A stretch of 64,000 bases of DNA from positions 905,301 through 969,300 of the forward strand of contig NC_006691.1 of the NCBI RefSeq assembly GCF_000091045.1, written 5' to 3'. A model generated the notes under the pieces. That model saw only the letters and a list, made by a program, of their open reading frames with translations. It was not told the DNA's origin and searched no databases. Source of the DNA: Cryptococcus deneoformans JEC21 (Eukaryota > Basidiomycota > Tremellomycetes > Tremellales > Cryptococcaceae). This document shows positions 12,351-30,083 of the stretch, one piece after another. The first letter of the stretch is position 1. Each line of letters opens with the position of its first letter. Both the position numbers and the translations under genes were made by a program.

Positions 12351-13085
12351 TGTAAGTGCAGAGCTGTCAGAATGATTGATCCAACCTGGATCTGGAGAGA
12401 TCAGTAGGGATCTGGAGGCATGGGAATTGTTAGTGGAGGCATGGGAATTGTTAGTGGAGGCATGGGAATTGTTGGTGGAGGCATGGGAATTGTTGGTGGT
12501 GGCATGGGAAGAAGGGGAGATTAGATTACATAAGCCAGAACACTTACAATATCGAAACAAATAAAGACAAAGGATTGTAGAATAGTTTCCATGCAACTTA
12601 GACATCTCTGGCAATCGACACCGCGTGCTCAAGCTCTCTCTAGACAACTCTACATCTGACAAGAGCACTATACTCATTTATTCTCTATGCATGCAGTCTT
12701 TGTGCATGCATCATCCTATGCATATTGCATATGCAGGAATTTATGCATTGCATTTACATGCAGGAATTTATGCAGTGCATTTACATGCATGCATTCCCAT
12801 GTATAAGCTGTATGAATATTCAGCTATATTTGTTGTGTATGTATTCATCCAGATTATGTAACATTCCATGTGTATAATGTTACATTTGAAATACTTAGTA
12901 ATGACGTGGCATTTGATGTGTGTAACTTTACTTTCTGACACACAGTTGGTACTTAGTAAAATAGTAGTCGCATATTGTTGTAGTTCTTCAATACTCAATC
13001 CACATGTATTACAACCAGTGCATGTTTTGCTAGTCAACTACACACTATACTACTATGACACTCAGTGAGACACCCAGTGTCTACA
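12351..13085 (+). repeat. LTR family A, 3' LTR of E2, split by a copia LTR
   Basis: The first 14 bp (12351-12364) and the remainder (12667-13085) add up to the same 433 bp as the 5' LTR. They differ from it at about six positions, all substitutions by my reading. The split is explained fully by the nested copia solo LTR and its target duplication. The LTR ends directly against E1 3' sequence. Confidence 0.9.
12365..12661 (+). repeat. Solo Ty1/copia LTR nested in LTR A
   Basis: Starts TGTCAGAATGATTG and ends ACATCTGACA, and is flanked by a perfect 5-bp duplication AGAGC (12360-12364 and 12662-12666). It matches the copia LTR at 19201-19519 in opposite orientation. It contains five units of a 21-bp tandem repeat around GGAGGCATGGGAATTGTTAGT, against seven in the other copy. 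Confidence 0.93.
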
Positions 13086-19200: not shown

Positions 19201-19519
19201 TGTCAGATGTAGAGTTGTCTAGAGAGAGCTTGAGCACGCTGTGTCGATTGCCAGAGATGTCTAAGTTGCATGGAAACTATTCTACAATCCTTTTTCTTTA
19301 TTTGTTTCAATACCACAAGTGTTCTAGCTTATGTAATTTGATCTTCCCTTCTTCCCATGCCTCCACCAACAATTCCCATGCCTCCACCAGCAATTCCCAT
19401 GCCTCCACCAGCAATTCCCATGCCTCCACCAGCAATTCCCATGCCTCCACCAGCAATTCCCATGCCTCCACCAGCAATTCCCATGCCTCCAGATCCAGGT
19501 TGGATCAATCATTCTGACA
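19201..19519 (-). repeat. Ty1/copia 5' LTR of E4
   Basis: TGTCAGAATG to TCTGACA on the minus strand, 319 bp. About 140 bp (19355-19495) are seven units of a 21-bp tandem repeat (CCCATGCCTCCACCAGCAATT on the plus strand, cut here to one unit plus a base). The long plus-strand frame over it is a by-product of the repeat. Confidence 0.9.
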
Positions 19520-20948
19520 CAACTACCCCGTCATCTTCGAGGGACATCAACATCTCTAGCTCTGTGGGGAGCTTCGGCAGTGCTCAAGGGAGTCCCTTGC
19601 CATCATCATCCTCCAGGCCTCTTTCCCCTTCACCAAACCTGAGAACTTTCTTCATCCCTCAGCACCCCCCCCCCCCCATCGTTACTCCGGTTTGGGAGCC
19701 TTTAACAAGCCTTGAGGGCATTGCTTCTGCAGAGGCCCTTACTTCTCTTATCCTGCAGGACCTGCAGGCCATTAACCAAGGTAAGCGACATAATAATATT
19801 CCTCAAAAACTTCCGGGAAGGAGACTTTGAGTCTTCTTCAACCATCATGCGAGCCTTGGGGAAACATCTCCCAAGGACATTGGGAGATGTCGCTGAGCAT
19901 CAAAACAAACTAGATTGGCTCACCTCCTCCCTCATCTCCTCGTTGACTTTAATAAAATGCTACCAACAATCTTTAACTGACCTAAGGTCTGAAATTCTAT
20001 ATTTAAAAGAAAAAATATCAGTGATTCAAGAGGCACAGCCTCACGATGGTGAGAACAGGCCCAGAAAGAAATCCAAGGGCACACACTTGCCCGAGGTGGT
20101 GGTATGTTGCCATTGTGTCATTGAGATTGATGTTAATGCTCACCCTTCCTTAGGCACTGGTCCACCGTAACGTCAGGATCCTGTTGGGTTTGCCTCCTTG
20201 TGGGGGCAAAACACTTTACTCCCCAGAGGACTGGCCAGATTATGACCCAGTCCTCGCCCCTAACGGCTACTTCCATGATGGCGAGACAAATGCCGTCATC
20301 TGGAGGCCCAATTGGGAAAATTTAAAATGTTCTTTGTGAGCAATGGTTTGTAATTCTGCTGGTGATAGAGAGCCACTGACCTCGGATATCAGTTTTTCGA
20401 ATCTAATTAATGCAGCTGTGGACGCCTGTCTGCAGGATTCGTCTGTAAGCACGATGCCCAGTCGGGAGCAGCTTAGCAGAAGAGTAAAAGAATACCTAGA
20501 AGGTATTTCAAAAATGAAAAAGAAAACCAAAGAGGAAAGGGAGGCCAACCAGCTCCTTAAGACCATTTGTGCCAGGGTAAACCCCGTAAGTGCTTACTAA
20601 GAGCCCAGTCAGCCATCATATCAACTAACATCCAACATACAGTTGAGTACATGGATCTCAGCTAACTTTGAAAACACCCCCCTCGCCCACTGTCATGAGA
20701 GTGAACTCATTCAGACTGCCTTCAAGCGAGGGATCCTAAAATCCTTACTCCTTGTCGACCACACAGAGACGTCCGTTCATGGTTTGTCTATTACTCAAAA
20801 CACAACCAACTCACAAGACGATGAAGTCTTGACAACTGATTCCAATAATTACGATGAGTTTAAAGTCCTCTGCGACCTCTATGAGCAAGAAAGGATAGAT
20901 GTGTTGAACTGGTCTTTACTTAGCACCTTCGTACAAACAGTCTCGTAG
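19520..20948 (+). other. Unrecognised, probably broken multi-exon coding remnant
   Basis: Several plus-strand frames look protein-like and are joined by plausible splice sites (for example GTAAGCG near 19781): a Ser/Pro-rich segment (19520-19780); a helical segment with SLTDLRSEILYLKEKIS (about 19860-20090); a piece with DWPDYDPVLAPNGYF (about 20170-20337); a Lys-rich helix (20343-20600); and an acidic piece with LCDLYEQERIDVLNW (20643-20948). The left end is cut by the copia LTR, so no start is present. I recognise no family. It could be a host gene or a transposon ORF remnant. Confidence 0.35.
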
Positions 20949-21036: not shown

Positions 21037-21198
21037 GAGAAAGACCAGAAAGTTACAAAAAAGGAATATTAATAATGGTATAGAGTCTGACCGAAAATAG
21101 ACCACGTAGTCATCTATCTAATTAAGGAACTAGACTAGTGAACTCTGTCAAGATGAGCCACGGTGGGTAGCGCTAGAAGTTTGGTGGTGGTCGGATGT

Positions 21199-21724
21199 TG
21201 TTACGACTCGTCCCCAACAAGGTCCGGCCTTGGAGACGAGATAGAAAGCCGTAGTTTAACTAAGCAATGAGATATATGTATGATATACCTCTTGACACTT
21301 GTCTGTTGGCGTATGGTATAGGGCGGAGGTATATTCGCTTGGGAAGATCAGGCAAGCTTATATACTAGTGGAGTAAGTTTATGTCGAAGGTGGTGCAAGG
21401 TAAGACGAGAGTGAGCACTGGGAGCTCGAGGACCTTTCGCAAAGTAACTTATGAAATATTGATCTTCGAGGGGAAGAAGATCAAGATCGAGGACAAAGCT
21501 CCCCTTTATATACTTCTACAGAAATCTATTTATATCCTTTGAGGTCCAGCTGGAGGTCCAGCTGGACGTCCAACTGGAGGTCCAACTGGAGGTCCAGTTC
21601 TTTTCTCGGAGGTCCAACTGGAGGTCCAGCTGGACCTTTTTTATCTGATTCGGATCTTGCCTTCCTATTACGTAACTCCCTCCTATGATATCTTATCTCT
21701 TCTTCTTTGTGCAGGCTCGTGACA
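21199..21724 (-). repeat. LTR family C, 3' LTR of E5
   Basis: Minus strand TGTCACGAGCCTG to GTCGTAACA, 526 bp. It contains an imperfect array of the 12-bp unit GGTCCAACTGGA around 21541-21640, two units fewer than the 5' LTR. Confidence 0.93.
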
Positions 21725-21745
21725 GTCACCCCCCCCTTCGAAGAC
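21725..21745 (-). other. Polypurine tract of E5
   Basis: On the minus strand GAAGGGGGGGGGTGAC directly precedes the 3' LTR, the expected plus-strand primer site. Confidence 0.7.
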
Positions 21746-22111
21746 GGTCGCTCCGTCGTGCCGTCTGCGGCTTGTTCTGTTGTGTACTTGTAACTAAAAT
21801 TTGCTGGAGCTATGGAATAAATTTCTATGAACTGGTCGTGAAAAATGTGGCTATGCTTTGATCTATCTAGAATAAAAAATAAGATTGATTGGGGAGTTAG
21901 GAATCTATGAACAGTTGGCAAAAAACAGAACGGAGGATTGAGTTCCAAATAGTGGGGTGTCTGTGAGCGCAAAGAACGTGTGGTATCGCCAAGAACAGGT
22001 GGTATTGGTCATATGTGAAGATAAGATCCCTTTTTTGGGTTCGGGATATGCGCTGTGGGTCCTCTGGAAGATTGGCTGTTAAGGGGGAGACGGGGAGGAG
22101 GATTTTCGAGG

Positions 22112-22119
22112 TATAAAAG
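22112..22119 (+). promoter_or_regulatory. TATA box of the antisense cargo gene
   Basis: TATAAAAG lies 93 bp upstream of the ATG at 22205, on the strand opposite to gag-pol. It supports independent transcription of the gene inside E5. The sequence from 21746 to 22111 shows nothing else I can name. Confidence 0.5.
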
Positions 22120-22204
22120 GATTGGGATTTGGTGCAAGATCACCGAAGTTTCTCTATCCGCCAAAAAAAATCTCGTCTGCCTATTTATCTTTGATCTTTC
22201 CTTC

Positions 22205-23310
22205 ATGCCTGGATCCACGTTTCAACCTAGCCTGATGAGTAACAGTTGGTGTCTCGATGACCCATATGGCATTATTCGACAGTTCTGCGCAGAGAATGTG
22301 TCGGTTGGTGATAATACCGCTGATGTAATAACGGATAATGGCGTATCGGTGGTTGCCGCTTCTGCTGTGTCGCCGAGTAGTTCTTCTGACAACTCCCTCG
22401 GGGTTTTCTTTGATCAAGTACGTGTGCTAATGTTGACAACGTGTTTGTAAGGTGCTAATGCCGAGTGTTTGAATAGGATTTCGCCTTCCCATCAATGGGA
22501 TGGGTCCCAGCGATGCATGATAGTGGAGTACCGATGGAGGCAGCGGGTGATAATATTCACTCGACTTCACTTTCTCGACCTGTGGATCCGCGAGTGCCAC
22601 GTTTGCAGGGTGCTGAACTATTCTTTGGTGCTCATGTGGAGGGAACTGTCTCGTCTGAAGTGGTTGAGGAGAGGGAGGAGGCAGTGGATGAGGGATATGA
22701 GCAGCGGCACCAGGTGAGGAGAAATGCTTTGTCTTGTGTGCGACCCGATTGAAGAGCTAATGGCGTAAGGAGGCACTGCGCAGGGAGCAGAGGAGGCGTA
22801 GGGTTGAGGAGCGTCAGAGGGCACCAGAGGTTTCGCCTTGTGACCAATGTCATGGGGCGGGTGCTGAATGTCGGGCCCTCTCATTATTCTCGACTTGTGG
22901 ACGGTGCACGGTGAAGGGTGTGCGGTGCTCGCACAATGCCAGCGGGGGTAGGGGTTCGGATGTTGTGAGTGGTAGGTCGGGGGTTGAAAATGTACAAGCT
23001 GATGGGCAGGGTAGGCAAGAGATTGGGAGGTTTCGTCGTCTATCTCCAGCGCGAGGTGAATGGCGCAGTGGCTTGTTTGTAAGACATGGAGATTCACGTG
23101 CTAATGTGTGAATGTAGCGAAACCAACACGTCTACCGCGTTTGAGGGAGTCCAGCAGGCAATCATTGCCTACCTCATGGAGGAGGAGGTGCTGGAAGTCC
23201 GAAGGCAAGAGATGAGGGGGAGGTTTCGGGAGGAGTTGCTGGTGGCATTGGGTATGTCGCGCAAGAGGAAGCGTGATGACAGGGAGGACTTGTCCGAGGA
23301 CGAGGAGTAG
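22205..23310 (+). CDS. Zn2Cys6-like protein encoded antisense within retrotransposon E5
   Basis: Gene model: exons 22205-22417, 22477-22713, 22770-23078 and about 23145-23310, all joined in phase 0, about 300 codons. The introns are 56-66 nt and at least three contain CTAAT branch-point sequences. Exon 3 encodes a cysteine array with spacing CX2CX6CX8CX2CX6C (CDQCHGAGAEC, then CGRCTVKGVRC), the spacing of fungal Zn(II)2Cys6 binuclear clusters, preceded by an Arg-rich helix (EALRREQRRRRVEERQR). The C-terminus has a helix and a basic patch RKRKRDD. The N-terminal half is Ser-rich with no known domain. It lies between pol and the 3' LTR on the opposite strand. DNA binding is inferred from the cysteine spacing only. 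Alternatives are a zinc-binding protein of another fold or a decayed capture. Confidence 0.65.
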
Positions 23311-23573
23311 GACCCGTGTGATGGTTCTGTTTTCCATTCTTCTCTTAATCTAGGTGTGTTTTCCATTGATTCGCCTTTCTTCCCTCGGCCAGAAACAAGG
23401 TTTATAAACTACTGTAGATATATTGTACTAATACTAACTCTTAGATGGCTTCTCGTTTTTTCGGTCTGGTTCAACTTTGATCTGTCTGTAGATTTTTCTT
23501 TCTTTCTCTTTTCTTTTGACCATAATTTTAATAACTACGAAAATAAAATGACTGTTACTATGAACTTGGTTTC

Positions 23574-26500
23574 CTATAATCGGTGTGTTGACTTATACTG
23601 ATCAACAATCTCTGAAGCATTTTCTAGAGCGGTTTCGGGTTCCCAACTGTTGTGTTCGGCACTGTAGCCGAGCCACTTGATAAGGAATTGGCGGCGTTTT
23701 CGGTAAAATCGATGATCGAGGATGCACTCGACTTCGTATTCTAGGTCACCTTCGACTTCGATAGGTGATGGTGCGACTTGTGTTCGCCCTGGGATCTCAT
23801 TCTCAATATATTTCTCAAGCAATTGGACGTGGAAGACGTCGTGGATACGCATTGATTTCGGCAACTCAAGGCGATACGCGTGGGAAGAAACGCGCGCGAT
23901 AATGGTGTAGGGACCGAGATAACGGTGATCTAATTTCTTGGTGGGTCGTTTCGTTTTGATGTTACGGGCAGATAGCCAGACTTTGTCGCCGATAGTATAT
24001 TCGGGAAGTGGGGCACGGTGCTTATCAAACTGTAGTGCTGCACTCTCTTGTGCTTTGGACATTTCTATCTTGAGGTGTTCGTGGAGCTTGCTCAAGTCGG
24101 TGATGGAGGCTCTGGCAGGTGGGCTGAAAATAGGAACGTTGTCATCGGGGGTAAACGATGCCCTGGGATGGTACCCTTTGTTGGCAAAGAAGGGGGACAT
24201 GGTAGTGGACGAATGGGGCGTATTGTTGTAAGTGAATTCCGCAACTGGGAGTAGCGGTGCCCATTCCTTTTGCTTATAATCGGTATAAAGGCGCAGATAT
24301 TGTTCTAAGACCTGGTTCACTCGTTCGGTTTGTCCATCTGTTTCTGGGTGAAAAGCTGTACTGAGTTCTAACTCGATGTGTAGGAGTTGTGTGAATGCTC
24401 GCCAAAAGCGGGATGTGAATTCAGATCCACGATCTGATACAATACTGGTCGGAATCCCGTGCTTGGAGAAGACGTGGGTGACATATAATTGGGCGAGTTC
24501 CTCGGCGTTGAGGCTAGTCGTTGTGGGGATAAAGAGAGCCATCTTGGTGAGTCGGTCTACGATCACAAGGATGGTGTTGTAGCCGTGTGATGGGGGAAGT
24601 TGTTCAATGAGGTCCATCGATACAGATGACCAGGGATATGGGGGAATGGGTAGAGACTTGAGTTCGCCATAGGGCTGATGACGTCTTGTCTTAGTTCTGC
24701 AACAAAGATCGCAGGAATCAATGTAGTGATTGACGAAGCCTTTTAGGCCTGGCCACCAGTAATGGCGTCGGATGAGTTGGATAGTCTTGCGTCGTCCGGG
24801 ATGCCCACTAGTGAGTGCATCATGGCATTCTTTCGTGACGAGGGTGCGTAGCTCGTTATTGGCTGGGACATAGAATGATTCGCCATATCTGAGGAGTCCT
24901 TCATCGTCTCGAGTATATGGGTGAGCTTCGGAGGGATGGTTGGCTTTGTCCAAGAATGGTTTTGCTGATTCATCGGTTTCTAGACCGGTTTTCAACAACG
25001 ACTTGATGGGCGAAGATATTTCCAACCGATCGAGTCCGGTTGTGGCAGTACCCAAGTACTGTCCAGGGCGAAGGAGAGTCTGGAAATTCTGAGGATTGGC
25101 AGCAGTAGTAAGGCTGGAGCCTTTCTCGAGTGGATGATAATCATGTCTTCGGGTGAGTGCGTCAGGCTTTGTGCCTTGTACGCCTGGTCGGTAGATGATA
25201 TTGAAGTCAAAGTCGGCTAGGAATTCAGACCATCGCGCCTGTCGTCGATTGAGTTGCTTGGTAGTCATAAAGTACTCCAGGCTTCTGTGGTCGGTGTAGA
25301 CACGAATGGTTTCTCTAGCACCTTCGAAGTAATGTCGCCATTCTTTGAATGCTGAAACAATTGCTAACATTTCTTTGTCGTGAATAGGATAGTTTAACTC
25401 GGCAGGCAACATTTTGTGAGAGAAGAAAGCAACTGGTTCGAGTTTCTTGTCGATTTCATGTGATAAGATACCTGCGATGGCATAGTCGGAGGCGTCGGTT
25501 TCAAGGATGAGTTGCTTGGTCGGATCGTAATGACGTAGGAGATCAACAGAGGTGAAACTCTTTTTGAGTGCTTCGAAAGATGTTCGTTGAGGTTCTTCCC
25601 ATACAAAGGGTAAGTCCTTCTTTGTCAAGTCGATAAGAGGTTTGGCGATACTAGAGTAGTCCTTGATGAACCTTCGGTAGAAGTTACAGAACCCAAGGAA
25701 GGATTGGGTATCACGGAGATTGCGAGGTGTCGGCCATTCCGTGATAGACTTTACTTTCTTGGTGTCCATTGATAGACCTTGGTCGCTGACAACGAAACCT
25801 AGGAACTCTACTGAGGTTTGATGGAACTCGCACTTTGAAGCTTTGACATATAATTGGGTTTGGCGGAGGCGATCTAGGACTTGTATGACGTGTGACTGGT
25901 GAGTCTCCAAGTCTGGGCTGTAGATGAGGATGTCGTCGAGGTAGATGATAACAAATATGTCTAGCAAGTCGCGGAAATTGTGGTTCATGAGATGTTGGAA
26001 GGATGCAGGGGCATTGGTGAGGCCAAACGGCATTACCAAATATTCGAAATGCCCATAGCGAGTACGGAAAGCTGTTTTCCATTCTTCGCCTGCCTTAATG
26101 CGAAGTAAATTGTAGGCTCCTCGCAGGTCGATCTTGGTGAATACTTTGGCTGATTTGAGTCGATCTAGGAGTTCGGCGATCAATGGTAGAGGATAGCGAT
26201 TCTTGATGGTGATCTTGTTGATTCCCCGGTAATCGACACACATCCTAAGCGATCCGTCTTTCTTTTTGACAAAGAGTATGGGTGCTCCGGCTGGTGATTC
26301 GGACGGTCGGATAAAACCTTTCTTAAGATTCTCATCAAGGTATTCGCGGAGAGCTTCAAGTTCTGTTTCGGAGAGATTGTATATGGGACCAAAAGGTGGG
26401 TTCTTTCCTTCTTCGAGAGGGATATGGTGGTCGAAAGACCTATGTTCTGGGAGTGTATCGGCGCTTTTCTTGTCGAATACATCTAGATATTGATGGTATT

Positions 26501-27143
26501 CTTTAGGTACTATTTCGGCATCGGTGTTTTCTTTTGGAGGTTTGTCATTGGTGATGACCATGGCTAAGTTGGCACTCGTCGTCTGTGATACAGGTGGGTG
26601 TATGGAAAGTGTTTCCCAGCTGATGGACGGATTGTGCTCTTGTAACCAGGTGATACCTAAGACGATGGGATAGGAGCCGATGTCGGTTATGAGGAGTCGG
26701 AGTAAGGTGTGTCCGAATGGTTTCTGGAAGTTGACCAGGATGTTGGCTTCTTCTTCAATTATAGTTCGCTGACCCGCAGCGTTGAATAGGTATAATGGGA
26801 TCGAATCTTCTATTTTCGTGGTTTTGAGGTTAAAGGTCTGGACGAATCTTTTGTCGATGAAGTTTGTAGAGGCACCGGAATCGATTAAAGCTTGATAAAC
26901 ATTGTTGTGAAAGAGAAAGTCGATTGTGAGTTGGTTTTTGTTGTTTTTGTTATTATCTTCGAGAGTTTGGAGATATTCGCAGGAGTCTGTATTGGCCGGT
27001 TTGATAGTACGCTCTTGTTCCCGGCTACCTTCTTCGACTTTGGCAGACAAGAGCATATCTAGTTTTTTGAAGGGAGAGTAGTATTGGATTGTTGCGAGGG
27101 GACCACTGGGCACTTGGCGACTTGATGGTTTTTGTCGGCGCAA
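23574..27143 (-). CDS. Pol polyprotein of chromovirus E5
   Basis: Open frame of 1189 codons; the real product is probably a Gag-Pol fusion entering this frame at 27062-27068. Domains: protease with LIDSGASTNFIDK (about residue 85); RT with YLDDILIYSPD (about 400); RNase H beginning ETDASDYAIAG (about 545); integrase zinc domain (HPGRRKT...CDLC, about 770-820); integrase core with MDLIEQLP, VSDRGSEFTSRFW and HPETDGQTERVNQ. The C-terminal chromodomain (about 1115-1185) shows FLIKWLGYSAEHNSWEP. The chromodomain identifies a chromovirus; in that group it can direct integration to marked chromatin. No lesions seen. The first 80 or so codons overlap gag and are probably not translated separately. 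Confidence 0.95.
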   Translation of the reverse strand: MRRQKPSSRQVPSGPLATIQYYSPFKKLDMLLSAKVEEGSREQERTIKPANTDSCEYLQTLEDNNKNNKNQLTIDFLFHNNVYQALIDSGASTNFIDKRFVQTFNLKTTKIEDSIPLYLFNAAGQRTIIEEEANILVNFQKPFGHTLLRLLITDIGSYPIVLGITWLQEHNPSISWETLSIHPPVSQTTSANLAMVITNDKPPKENTDAEIVPKEYHQYLDVFDKKSADTLPEHRSFDHHIPLEEGKNPPFGPIYNLSETELEALREYLDENLKKGFIRPSESPAGAPILFVKKKDGSLRMCVDYRGINKITIKNRYPLPLIAELLDRLKSAKVFTKIDLRGAYNLLRIKAGEEWKTAFRTRYGHFEYLVMPFGLTNAPASFQHLMNHNFRDLLDIFVIIYLDDILIYSPDLETHQSHVIQVLDRLRQTQLYVKASKCEFHQTSVEFLGFVVSDQGLSMDTKKVKSITEWPTPRNLRDTQSFLGFCNFYRRFIKDYSSIAKPLIDLTKKDLPFVWEEPQRTSFEALKKSFTSVDLLRHYDPTKQLILETDASDYAIAGILSHEIDKKLEPVAFFSHKMLPAELNYPIHDKEMLAIVSAFKEWRHYFEGARETIRVYTDHRSLEYFMTTKQLNRRQARWSEFLADFDFNIIYRPGVQGTKPDALTRRHDYHPLEKGSSLTTAANPQNFQTLLRPGQYLGTATTGLDRLEISSPIKSLLKTGLETDESAKPFLDKANHPSEAHPYTRDDEGLLRYGESFYVPANNELRTLVTKECHDALTSGHPGRRKTIQLIRRHYWWPGLKGFVNHYIDSCDLCCRTKTRRHQPYGELKSLPIPPYPWSSVSMDLIEQLPPSHGYNTILVIVDRLTKMALFIPTTTSLNAEELAQLYVTHVFSKHGIPTSIVSDRGSEFTSRFWRAFTQLLHIELELSTAFHPETDGQTERVNQVLEQYLRLYTDYKQKEWAPLLPVAEFTYNNTPHSSTTMSPFFANKGYHPRASFTPDDNVPIFSPPARASITDLSKLHEHLKIEMSKAQESAALQFDKHRAPLPEYTIGDKVWLSARNIKTKRPTKKLDHRYLGPYTIIARVSSHAYRLELPKSMRIHDVFHVQLLEKYIENEIPGRTQVAPSPIEVEGDLEYEVECILDHRFYRKRRQFLIKWLGYSAEHNSWEPETALENASEIVDQYKSTHRL
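27059..27068 (-). promoter_or_regulatory. Programmed -1 ribosomal frameshift site between gag and pol
   Basis: In the gag frame the last codons are TCA AAA AAC TAG. This contains the canonical slippery heptamer A-AAA-AAC in the correct phase, ending right before the stop codon. Slipping back by one base continues into the pol frame, which is the -1 frame. I did not fold the downstream RNA for a stimulatory structure. Confidence 0.8.
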
Positions 27144-28360
27144 TAGAGGCAGAGGTTATGATCCTTTCGCCTCTGATATTCTTCTGGAGTCAGACGTCCA
27201 CGTCTGGTTATCCTAGCTGAACTTGGGACAAATGCAGCCCTCAGGTTGACTGCCGGCGTCACCTCTTTATTGAAGGTGGTGTTGGCAGTGGTAGACCTTA
27301 TCGGCATGCTATTCGCCGCAGAGAAACGTCTGAAGTTGTTGGGGCGATTGTTATTGTAAGAGGTGCGGGTGTAGTCGCTTCGGGTGGCGTTGAAAGGCGC
27401 CTTTGGTTGCTGGTCTCGCTTTGCTAATACTCGTTCATATCGACGGCTATCAATGCGGATGGCCATGTCTTGGAGGTTCTTGAATGACTTGGCTTTGGGT
27501 AGTCTGGCAAGTTCGTCTTTGATGTCATCCTTCAAGCCCCTGTAGAAGCAAGCCTTCTTCGCTTCGTCGTTCCACTGAACCAAGGTGGCATAACGCATAA
27601 AGGTTGCGAGGTATGAGGATACAGAACCTTGCTGACGAACAGTGTTTAGTTGTCGTTCTGCTGTCTGTTCTTCGTCTGGATCTCCGAAGTTCTTCCTTAA
27701 TTCGGCACAAAATTTCTTGAAGTCCAGCATAAACTTGGGCTGGGGATCGATGGTTACGAAGGGTTGGAACCATAAGAATGGGGTATCTCGGAGGAAAGAT
27801 CCGGCGTATAGGACTTTGGAGGTCTCGGTAGGGAAACGAGAAGGTTGGAGGGTAATCACCATTGTCACTTGAGTGATAAAGGTTGAGAGCTTGGTATACT
27901 GCCCATGGTAGTACTCGGGTTGGGATACCTTCGGTTCTTGAGGTCTACTGGAGGGTACTGAGGTGCGTTGTCGGCTGTATTCCCTTTTAACTTCTGGGTA
28001 TGGTGTTTGCGCTGACAGGTCGCGGCTTGATCTAGGTTCTTCGTCTTCTTCATCCAATTCTTGTTCGTTTTTGCCCTCATTATCTTCGCTATTATCAAAC
28101 ATCTGTCGTTCGACTTTGCTCTCTTCCAACTTATGCGTCAACTCTTCCTTCTGTTGCTCAAGTCTTGCAATATGGTTGCGCATCATCTCGAGTTGGGTTT
28201 GGGTGTCGTTTGATGTGTTGTCGGCGGTAAATGGATCGGATTGAGGATTGGTGTTGAATGAACCCGCGGGATTGTGGTCGTCATCGAGGGTATGTTCTAC
28301 TTCCTTGCCTTTTTCGACCTTTTCCACAGCTCGACCACTACGAGTGGATGGACCTGACAT
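27059..28360 (-). CDS. Gag protein of chromovirus E5
   Basis: 433 codons from an ATG about 160 bp after the 5' LTR. The N-terminus has an acidic coiled-coil-like segment (roughly residues 55-110). The retrotransposon Gag (capsid-like) region follows (about 170-300). A zinc knuckle CLYCADKNHQVAKC (CX2CX4HX4C) lies near the C-terminus. The gag stop lies at the frameshift site. Gag forms the particle that packages the RNA. The frame is intact. Confidence 0.92.
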   Translation of the reverse strand: MSGPSTRSGRAVEKVEKGKEVEHTLDDDHNPAGSFNTNPQSDPFTADNTSNDTQTQLEMMRNHIARLEQQKEELTHKLEESKVERQMFDNSEDNEGKNEQELDEEDEEPRSSRDLSAQTPYPEVKREYSRQRTSVPSSRPQEPKVSQPEYYHGQYTKLSTFITQVTMVITLQPSRFPTETSKVLYAGSFLRDTPFLWFQPFVTIDPQPKFMLDFKKFCAELRKNFGDPDEEQTAERQLNTVRQQGSVSSYLATFMRYATLVQWNDEAKKACFYRGLKDDIKDELARLPKAKSFKNLQDMAIRIDSRRYERVLAKRDQQPKAPFNATRSDYTRTSYNNNRPNNFRRFSAANSMPIRSTTANTTFNKEVTPAVNLRAAFVPSSARITRRGRLTPEEYQRRKDHNLCLYCADKNHQVAKCPVVPSQQSNTTLPSKN

Positions 28361-28507
28361 GATATAGGATATGGTATACGAAGTGGTGGTATGAGGTTAT
28401 AGGTGGCTGAGGTTGTTGATGAAGTTGTTGATGAAGTTGTATAAGGGTATACGTATGTGTCGAAGGTAAAAGGTACATAAAGTCTATACCAACCAACCAC
28501 AAGTGTG

Positions 28508-28523
28508 GAAGATCAATATTTAC
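28508..28523 (-). other. Predicted self-priming binding site of E5
   Basis: Two bases after the 5' LTR the minus strand reads AAATATTGATCTTC. Its exact 14-base complement, GAAGATCAATATTT, lies inside the LTR (minus strand 28792-28779), about 43 bp after a TATA box. This fits Tf1-type self-priming, in which the RNA 5' end folds back onto the PBS. No tRNA 3'-end complement is seen here. Confidence 0.65.
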
Positions 28524-29073
28524 TGTTACGACTCGTCCCCAACAAGGTCCGGCCTTGGAGACGAGATAGAAAGCCGTAGTTTAACTAAGCAATGAGATAT
28601 ATGTATGATATACCTCTTGACACTTGTCTGTTGGCGTATGGTATAGGGCGGAGGTATATTCGCTTGGGAAGATCAGGCAAGCTTATATACTAGTGGAGTA
28701 AGTTTATGTCGAAGGTGGTGCAAGGTAAGACGAGAGTGAGCACTGGGAGCTCGAGGACCTTTCGCAAAGTAACTTATGAAATATTGATCTTCGAGGGGAA
28801 GAAGATCAAGATCAAGGACAAAGCTCCCCTTTATATACTTCTACAGAAATCTATTTATATCCTTTGAGGTCCAGCTGGAGGTCCAGCTGGACGTCCAACT
28901 GGAGGTCCAACTGGAGGTCCAACTGGAGGTCCAACTGGAGGTCCAGTTCTTTTCTCGGAGGTCCAACTGGAGGTCCAGCTGGACCTTTTTTATCTGATTC
29001 GGATCTTGCCTTCCTATTACGTAACTCCCTCCTATGATATCTTATCTCTTCTTCTTTGTGCAGGCTCGTGACA
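28524..29073 (-). repeat. LTR family C, 5' LTR of E5
   Basis: 550 bp, identical to the 3' LTR by eye except for two extra 12-bp units of the GGTCCAACTGGA array and one substitution. Includes a TATA-like TATATAAAGG before the predicted RNA start near 28792. Confidence 0.93.
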
Positions 29074-29078
29074 GATGT

Positions 29079-29570: not shown

Positions 29571-30083
29571 TGTCACGAGCCTGCACAAAGAAGAAGAGAT
29601 AAGATATCATAGGAGGGAGTTACATAATAGGAAAGCAAGATCCGATTCAGATAAGAAGGTCCAGCTGGACCTCCAGTTGGACCTCCGAGAAAAGAACTGG
29701 ACGTCCAGTTGGACCTCCAGTTGGACCTCCAGCTGGACCTCAAAGGATATAAATAGATTTCTGTAGAAGTATATAAAGGGGAGCTTTGTCCTCGATCTTG
29801 ATCTTCTTCCCCTCGAAGATCAATATTTCATAAGTTACTTTGTGAAAGGTCCTCGAGCTCCCAGTGCTCACTCTCGTCTTACCTTGCACCACCTTCGACA
29901 TAAACTTACTCCACTAGCATATAAGCTTGCCTGATCTTCCCAAGCGAATATACCTCTGCCCTATACCATACGCCAACAGACAAGTGTCAAGAGGTATATC
30001 ATACATATATCTCATTGCTTAGTTAAACTACGGCTTTCTACCTCGTCTCCAAGGCCGGACCTTGTTGGGGACGAGTCGTAACA
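29571..30083 (+). repeat. Solo LTR C without target duplication
   Basis: TGTCACGAGCCTG to GTCGTAACA, 513 bp. TATA box at 29772-29777 and GAAGATCAATATTT at 29815-29828. The flanks are GAGGA (left) and GTAAG (right) and do not match, unlike the other insertions in the window. Confidence 0.92.

What the first reader, a model, noticed from the sequence alone, without database searches (positions are those of the whole stretch)
22105..23310. Intron-containing Zn2Cys6-like gene carried antisense inside a complete chromovirus
Between pol and the 3' LTR of E5 lies a plus-strand gene with its own TATA box, four phase-0 exons, three introns with CTAAT branch points, and cysteines spaced CX2CX6CX8CX2CX6C. 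Introns in a cargo gene survive retrotransposition only if the gene is antisense to the genomic RNA, because sense introns would be spliced out; this one is. A retroelement carrying a putative DNA-binding regulator could use it to control itself or to influence the host. The gene structure is seen directly; the function and the idea of selected cargo are inference.
Basis: partly seen in the sequence, partly recalled or inferred. Interest (0 to 1): 0.78.

Follow-up and report, generated by a model that had tools for sequence, protein, structure and literature searches.

The report
Antisense accessory gene in fungal retrotransposon
A jumping element in a Cryptococcus-like yeast genome carries, on its opposite strand, an extra intron-containing gene whose protein code has been preserved by selection, probably for a small zinc-binding nuclear protein, although a near-identical sister element does without it.

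Summary
E5 (21199-29073, minus strand) is a complete Ty3 chromovirus (LTRs identical at 526 of 527 aligned positions, GATGT duplication). Between pol and its 3' LTR, on the plus strand, lies a gene that I model with five exons and four introns (22205-23310, 292 aa), not four and three. Its exon 4/5 junction is in 10 of 19 public homologous protein models; all 15 named ones are Cryptococcus.

Against a divergent copy, exons 2-5 give dN/dS 0.25 (0.17-0.38), with 58 of 106 differences at third codon positions; shifted frames give above 1. So the protein has been under selection. All six cysteines are kept in the 10 models that span them, but Zn2Cys6 membership is not shown (Pfam below cut-off, typical residues absent, models poor).

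A twin on C10 with open gag and pol (pol 99.4% identical to E5's) lacks it. The gene sits in a 1.7-kb cassette (21847-23550) that appears to be exchanged between elements.

It belongs with known antisense accessory ORFs of LTR retrotransposons (Grande gene23, Retand ORF4, Boty brtn), as an intron-rich, presence/absence variant. Expression, splicing, zinc binding and function are untested.

The parts
21199..29073 (-). Complete Ty3 chromovirus E5 that carries the gene
   Evidence: LTR pair and duplication GATGT at 21194-21198 and 29074-29078; RVT_1, RT_RNaseH, rve, Chromo, Retrotrans_gag
21199..21724 (-). 3' LTR
21847..23550 (+). Accessory-gene cassette: missing from gene-minus sister elements, where about 75 nt of other sequence stand in its place
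   Evidence: Boundaries 21846/23551 in C10 and C5, 21839/23551 in C2b, 21878/23551 in C1b; C1a shares 23551 but its LTR side is truncated
22112..22118 (+). TATAAAA, 87 nt before the start codon; TATAAAA also in C2, C14, C11a, C11b
   Evidence: sequence, alignment; promoter use not tested
22205..22417 (+). Exon 1
   Evidence: agrees with the N-termini of P0001, P0003 and P0004
22477..22713 (+). Exon 2
   Evidence: dN/dS 0.47 [0.22-0.93] against C12
22770..22964 (+). Exon 3: basic stretch (EALRREQRRRRVEERQRAP) and six-cysteine cluster
   Evidence: dN/dS 0.17 [0.07-0.36] against C12; full six-cysteine motif in 10 of 19 homologs, the others not spanning it whole
23015..23055 (+).
   Evidence: exon 4/5 junction in 10 of 19 public models; P0002, P0003 and P0011 use another form
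23118..23310 (+). Exon 5: predicted long helix, RKRKR stretch, acidic tail, stop TAG
   Evidence: exons 4+5 dN/dS 0.18 [0.08-0.37] against C12; helix only in a low-confidence model
23574..28396 (-). gag (27059-28396) and pol (23574-27155) open frames
28524..29073 (-). 5' LTR

Best explanation
The feature is an accessory gene of a Ty3 chromovirus, carried antisense between pol and the 3' LTR, with a TATA box of its own and, in the best model, five exons for a 292-aa protein. Shown here: anatomy, antisense geometry, presence in several elements, past selection on the protein, conserved cysteines, and optional presence as a cassette that does not follow the descent of pol. Inferred: the protein enters the nucleus (RKRKR), binds zinc through its six cysteines and nucleic acid through the basic stretch and cluster, and acts in trans as a regulator of the element's or the host's transcription or silencing, so that an element without the gene (C10) can spread beside elements that have it. 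Its introns persist because in the element's genomic RNA they read in reverse and are not spliced.
For: Selection: dN/dS 0.25 [0.17-0.38] for exons 2-5, E5 against C12; shifted frames 1.87 and 1.36; 58 of 106 differences at third positions, p = 5e-6. Length differences in exons 1, 2 and 5 of C2, C14 and exons 2 and 5 of C11a, C12 are multiples of three. Spread: 19 homologous protein clusters, 15 of them named, all Cryptococcus. Position: 6 copies (C6, C2, C14, C11a, C11b, C13) keep the gene's 5' side next to the LTR and 4 (C6, C2, C14, C12) keep pol's end next to the gene's 3' side, all antisense. Cassette: shared boundaries in gene-minus elements; over the whole pol E5 is 99.39% identical to gene-minus C10 and 99.27% to gene-plus C2. 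The gene's dS between versions (0.43) exceeds the largest pol dS among five pairs measured (0.17). Analogues: Grande GENE23 is nuclear (PMC7264820, parts 1-2 of 3 read), the Retand TRP28 domain is predicted to bind DNA (PMC11963269, passages).
Against: No RNA or protein evidence. Pfam Zn_clus never passes its cut-off (best 12.6 of 21 bits) and in P0002, P0008 and P0013 another family, also below cut-off, scores higher. AlphaFold confidence is poor (mean pLDDT 36.7 and 61); Foldseek finds nothing significant. C10 has open gag and pol and no gene. P0002, the only homologous model named as C. deneoformans, has a different exon 4. In gag and at pol's end gene-plus C14 is slightly closer to E5 (99.7, 99.8%) than C10 is (99.6, 99.6%), so the evidence for exchange is short of a tree test. 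Among the young copies changes are too few to show current selection (E5-C14: 4 synonymous, 4 nonsynonymous; E5-C2: 6 and 3), and C12 against C11a gives 0.69 [0.38-1.36], compatible with decay.
Confidence: 0.6

Rival explanations
1. Passenger: a host gene caught with its introns by chance and carried along without benefit to the element.
For: Optional presence; intron-rich structure like a host gene; decayed copies C11a and C11b.
Against: Purifying selection between two divergent versions. No host parent found: the 31 matches listed in the own genome are all at gene copies or relics, and the one away from LTR sequence (C14:683971-684132, 57% over 54 aa) is a lone exon-5-like relic; these lists are lower bounds. 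No named homolog outside Cryptococcus in three protein searches.
Confidence: 0.15
2. The antisense RNA, not the protein, matters: its introns stall spliceosomes, recruit the host SCANR complex and give siRNAs that limit the element.
For: In C. neoformans, inefficiently spliced transposon transcripts are routed to siRNA production (PMC5851062 and PMC5006051, passages; the original paper is not held). Four introns in one antisense gene could be substrates. Both effects could act at once.
Against: Selection is seen on codons: introns 2 and 3 differ by 20-32% between versions while dN is 0.11-0.14. But introns 1 and 4 differ by only 5% and 8-18%, so constraint there is not excluded.
Confidence: 0.12
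3. An independent mobile element or gene nested in the chromovirus, moving on its own.
For: Sharp cassette boundaries.
Against: No inverted 10-mers near the edges; same place and orientation in the copies whose LTR or pol neighbour survives.
Confidence: 0.04

Closest known systems
Antisense additional ORFs of plant LTR retrotransposons (aORF-3R: Grande gene23, RIRE2, Retand ORF4 with TRP28)
   Same: Between pol and 3' LTR, antisense, conserved across species; Grande GENE23 is nuclear and transcribed from its own promoter (PMC7264820, parts 1-2 of 3 read); the Retand TRP28 domain probably binds DNA (PMC11963269, abstract and passages).
   Different: No Pfam match to TRP28; four modelled introns; basidiomycete host (by the inferred organism); present in some and absent from other near-identical elements, whereas 97% of Retand clusters have antisense TRP28 ORFs (PMC11963269).
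brtn, the antisense gene of Boty / BcGypsy1 in Botrytis cinerea
   Same: A fungal Ty3 element with an additional antisense gene (PMC8365987, passages; PMC7264820; the original paper seen only as a reference title).
   Different: Ascomycete host; sequence, introns and cysteines of brtn were not compared here.
HTLV-1 HBZ and other retroviral antisense proteins
   Same: A nuclear protein coded antisense in a retroelement (PMC11963269, passage).
   Different: HBZ is a bZIP protein (recalled). The HTLV antisense promoter lies inside the 3' LTR (PMC7264820); here the TATA box lies about 390 nt away from the LTR, in the internal region.
Fungal Zn2Cys6 proteins (PF00172)
   Same: Cysteine spacing; the H99 homolog CNAG_07950 carries a UniRef name beginning 'Zn(2)-C6 funga' (cut off there).
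   Different: Below the Pfam cut-off in all 10 proteins scanned; no basic run between Cys 2 and 3, no proline between Cys 3 and 4 (features recalled as typical).

Membership tests
Ty3 chromovirus (the host element) | LTRs with target-site duplication; gag; protease, RT, RNase H, integrase; chromodomain | tested here: met
Antisense accessory ORF of LTR retrotransposons (aORF-3R) | Between pol and 3' LTR, antisense to gag-pol | tested here: met
Antisense accessory ORF of LTR retrotransposons (aORF-3R) | Protein conserved to a degree similar to the element's other proteins | tested here: met
   Gene dN/dS 0.25; pol 0.17-0.44 in five pairs
Antisense accessory ORF of LTR retrotransposons (aORF-3R) | Present in most copies of the family (described as usual in PMC7264820) | tested here: inconclusive
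   At the pol/3' junction 4 places have the gene (C6, C2, C14, C12) and 5 lack it (C10, C5, C2b, C1a, C1b); lists are lower bounds, one genome only
Antisense accessory ORF of LTR retrotransposons (aORF-3R) | Transcribed from its own promoter (as in Grande) | not testable with these tools
   Only a TATA box at 22112-22118, kept in other copies
Fungal Zn2Cys6 proteins (PF00172) | Spacing CX2CX6CX5-12CX2CX6-8C (recalled) | tested here: met
   0 of 20,000 shuffles
Fungal Zn2Cys6 proteins (PF00172) | Score above the Pfam gathering cut-off | tested here: not met
   Listed for 8 of 10 proteins at 8.9-12.6 bits against 21; not listed for P0001 and P0005 (the protein had a superseded exon 4)
Fungal Zn2Cys6 proteins (PF00172) | Basic residues between Cys 2 and 3, proline between Cys 3 and 4 (recalled) | tested here: not met
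   Read from CDQCHGAGAECRALSLFSTCGRCTVKGVRC
Fungal Zn2Cys6 proteins (PF00172) | Two-zinc cluster fold | tested here: inconclusive
   Mean pLDDT 36.7 and 61; no significant Foldseek match, no PDB sequence match

The most novel reading that the evidence does not exclude
The cassette is a dedicated trans-acting self-control or counter-silencing gene of Cryptococcus chromoviruses: a new family of zinc-binding nuclear proteins that modulates heterochromatin, RNAi (SCANR) or LTR transcription, kept in balance by exchange between gene-bearing and gene-free elements, with its antisense introns as a second, RNA-level layer read by the host's spliceosome-coupled RNAi.
Probability: 0.15. Interest if true: 0.85.

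Novelty: new variant of a known kind. Interest (0 to 1): 0.55.

Why it matters
Antisense accessory genes of LTR retrotransposons have no settled function. Here such a gene occurs in what appears to be a tractable haploid yeast whose transposon silencing is tied to introns, with natural element pairs that differ by the presence of the gene. That makes the question of what an antisense accessory gene does for its element directly testable. It also suggests that CNAG_07950, a homolog of this retrotransposon-borne gene, should not be read as an ordinary host gene in genotype-phenotype lists without checking.

Tried and rejected
My own first fit of introns 3 and 4 was superseded too; the first homology search, first Pfam scan and first protein alignment used that 298-aa version, which differs in exon 4. 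Public gene models then gave the five-exon model. P0002, P0003 and P0011 have another exon 4, and P0016 and P0018 read from inside intron 4 straight into exon 5, so alternative splicing or a retained intron remains possible. All public models are predictions as far as I know.

Led nowhere: AlphaFold on 8 homologs and on exon 3 alone; Foldseek (three hits, defensins, E 2.9 or worse); PDB sequence search (no match); a third protein search on residues 140-289 of P0001 (13 proteins, all among the 19 already found).

Literature: no paper describing an antisense gene in a Cryptococcus retrotransposon appeared in the listings; most listed papers were not opened, and I did not check the founding Tcn paper, so it may be mentioned there. 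I did not assign E5 to a Tcn family, and did not test that the window is centromeric.

Full report
WHERE. The window is C6:905301-969300 of a genome of 19,051,922 bases in 14 contigs. By recall this is the size and chromosome number of Cryptococcus deneoformans JEC21. It fits that public protein P0002, CNBN2000 of C. deneoformans B-3501A, matches the C14 copy exactly in the two stretches tested, up to GGRGSDV and from ETNTS on.

ELEMENT. E5 runs from 21199 to 29073 on the minus strand. Its LTRs agree at 526 of 527 aligned positions with 24 gap columns, and GATGT flanks it on both sides. Pol carries RVT_1, RNase H, integrase and a chromodomain; gag is recognised as Retrotrans_gag.

GENE MODEL. 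Plus-strand exons 22205-22417, 22477-22713, 22770-22964, 23015-23055 and 23118-23310 join into 292 codons plus stop. Donors are GTACGT, GTGAGG, GTGAGT, GTGAAT; acceptors GAATAG, CGTAAG, GGGTAG, ATGTAG; lengths 59, 56, 50 and 62 nt. Two introns of a cloned C. neoformans gene are 52 and 49 nt (PMC5851062, passage), so the sizes are ordinary. The three-intron model, as far as I could rebuild it, shifts frame. Of 19 public homologous models, 10 (P0001, 5, 6, 7, 8, 9, 10, 12, 13, 14) show the exon 4/5 junction used here; P0002, P0003 and P0011 use another form; P0004 has exon 4 but not the junction; P0015, P0017 and P0019 end earlier; P0016 and P0018 read from inside intron 4 into exon 5. In the divergent copies the donor and acceptor of introns 2 and 4 are kept in C11a and C12; intron 3's donor is GT in C11a and GC in C12; intron 1's donor is lost in C12.

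SELECTION. The genome holds a second, divergent version of the gene. Against C12, exons 2-5 (217 codons) show 58 synonymous and 48 nonsynonymous changes: dS 0.43, dN 0.11, ratio 0.25 (bootstrap 0.17-0.38). Shifting the frame gives 1.87 and 1.36. Per part: exon 2 0.47, exon 3 0.17, exons 4+5 0.18. Against C11a, which has a frameshift and stops, the ratio is 0.33. Of 106 differences to C12, 58 are at third positions (p = 5e-6). C12 keeps exons 2-5 open although much of its exon 1 is replaced. Exon 1 gives 0.38 (C11a) and 0.45 (C11b) on few changes. C12 against C11a gives 0.69 (0.38-1.36), and the three young copies differ too little to test.

CYSTEINES. Of 19 homologs, 10 contain the whole motif, all with the same spacing; eight lack the region and P0011 has half of it. 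The spacing fits Zn2Cys6, but Pfam's model stays under its cut-off in all 10 proteins scanned (listed for 8, at 8.9-12.6 bits against 21), other families below cut-off score higher in three of them, and the basic loop and linker proline recalled as typical are missing. 'Six-cysteine, probably zinc-binding' is the safe description.

OPTIONAL CASSETTE. In C10, C5, C2b, C1a and C1b the sequence passes from pol's end to the LTR side without the gene: 21847-23550 is missing in C10 and C5 and about 75 nt of other sequence stand there; C2b is alike, C1b keeps somewhat more on the left, and in C1a the LTR side is truncated. C10's gag and pol are open over the same 445 and 1193 codons as E5's; C5's are broken. 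Over the whole pol E5 is 99.39% identical to gene-minus C10 and 99.27% to gene-plus C2. By pieces, E5-C10 is 99.6 (gag), 99.4 (RT), 99.6 (integrase), 99.6 (pol end); E5-C2 is 99.1, 99.3, 99.8, 98.3; E5-C14 is 99.7, 98.9, not obtained, 99.8. So the gene's presence does not clearly follow the descent of pol; no tree test was made. The gene's two versions are more divergent (dS 0.43) than any of five pol pairs measured (highest dS 0.17). Identity of E5 to C11a is 92-97% in 60-base steps up to the one starting at 22490, falls to 68-83% from 22550 to 23090, and is 80-95% beyond. Exchange of 3' cassettes between elements, by template switching or gene conversion, is the simplest reading; it is inference.

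OTHER COPIES. The own genome holds gene copies or fragments at C6, C2, C14, C11 (two), C12, C3 and C13, plus a lone exon-5-like relic at C14:683971-684132. No intact host parent was found; the lists are lower bounds.

MECHANISM. Most likely a small nuclear protein made antisense from its own promoter and acting in trans. RKRKR, the basic stretch and the cysteine cluster suggest nucleic-acid binding; none of this is tested. In this fungus poorly spliced transposon transcripts are fed to RNAi by SCANR (PMC5851062, PMC5006051, passages), so the introns may have a regulatory cost or use of their own. One paper reports by qRT-PCR that the H99 homolog CNAG_07950 is higher in one group of isolates (PMC12363409, passages only), which suggests that a relative is transcribed; strand and splicing are unknown, and primers may hit several copies.

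KNOWN KIND. Antisense accessory ORFs between pol and the 3' LTR are known from plant elements and from Boty in Botrytis (PMC7264820, parts 1-2 of 3 read; PMC11963269 and PMC8365987, passages). What differs here is the six-cysteine protein without a recognised domain, four modelled introns, and the presence/absence cassette.

Noticed in passing
L030 (C10:867920-874501) and L032 (C5:783160-789728): Gene-minus sister elements with an alternative spacer of about 75 nt; gag and pol are open in C10 and broken in C5.
   Followed up: partly
L056:1472-1633 (C14:683971-684132): Lone exon-5-like relic with an intron-4-like acceptor before it, 57% identical over 54 aa, no LTR match in the 3.5 kb fetched: possibly an older paralog.
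   Followed up: partly
window 29571-30083: An inverted LTR of the same family stands about 500 bases beyond E5's 5' LTR.
   Followed up: no
window 19352-19491: A 21-bp tandem repeat, six exact copies of CCCATGCCTCCACCA plus a partial one, in an open plus-strand frame (19342-19830); the stretch recurs inverted at 12413-12661.
   Followed up: no
H99 chromosome 1 near 975 kb (literature only): CNAG_07950, a homolog of this gene, appears in two genotype-phenotype studies (PMC6635531, PMC12363409, passages), one of which removed centromeric variants; repeat misalignment is a possible cause.
   Followed up: no
C11a gene copy (L004): Of 199 differences from E5 in the aligned stretch, 141 are transitions and 40 are E5 CpG read as TpG or CpA, as decay of methylated DNA would give.
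   Followed up: partly
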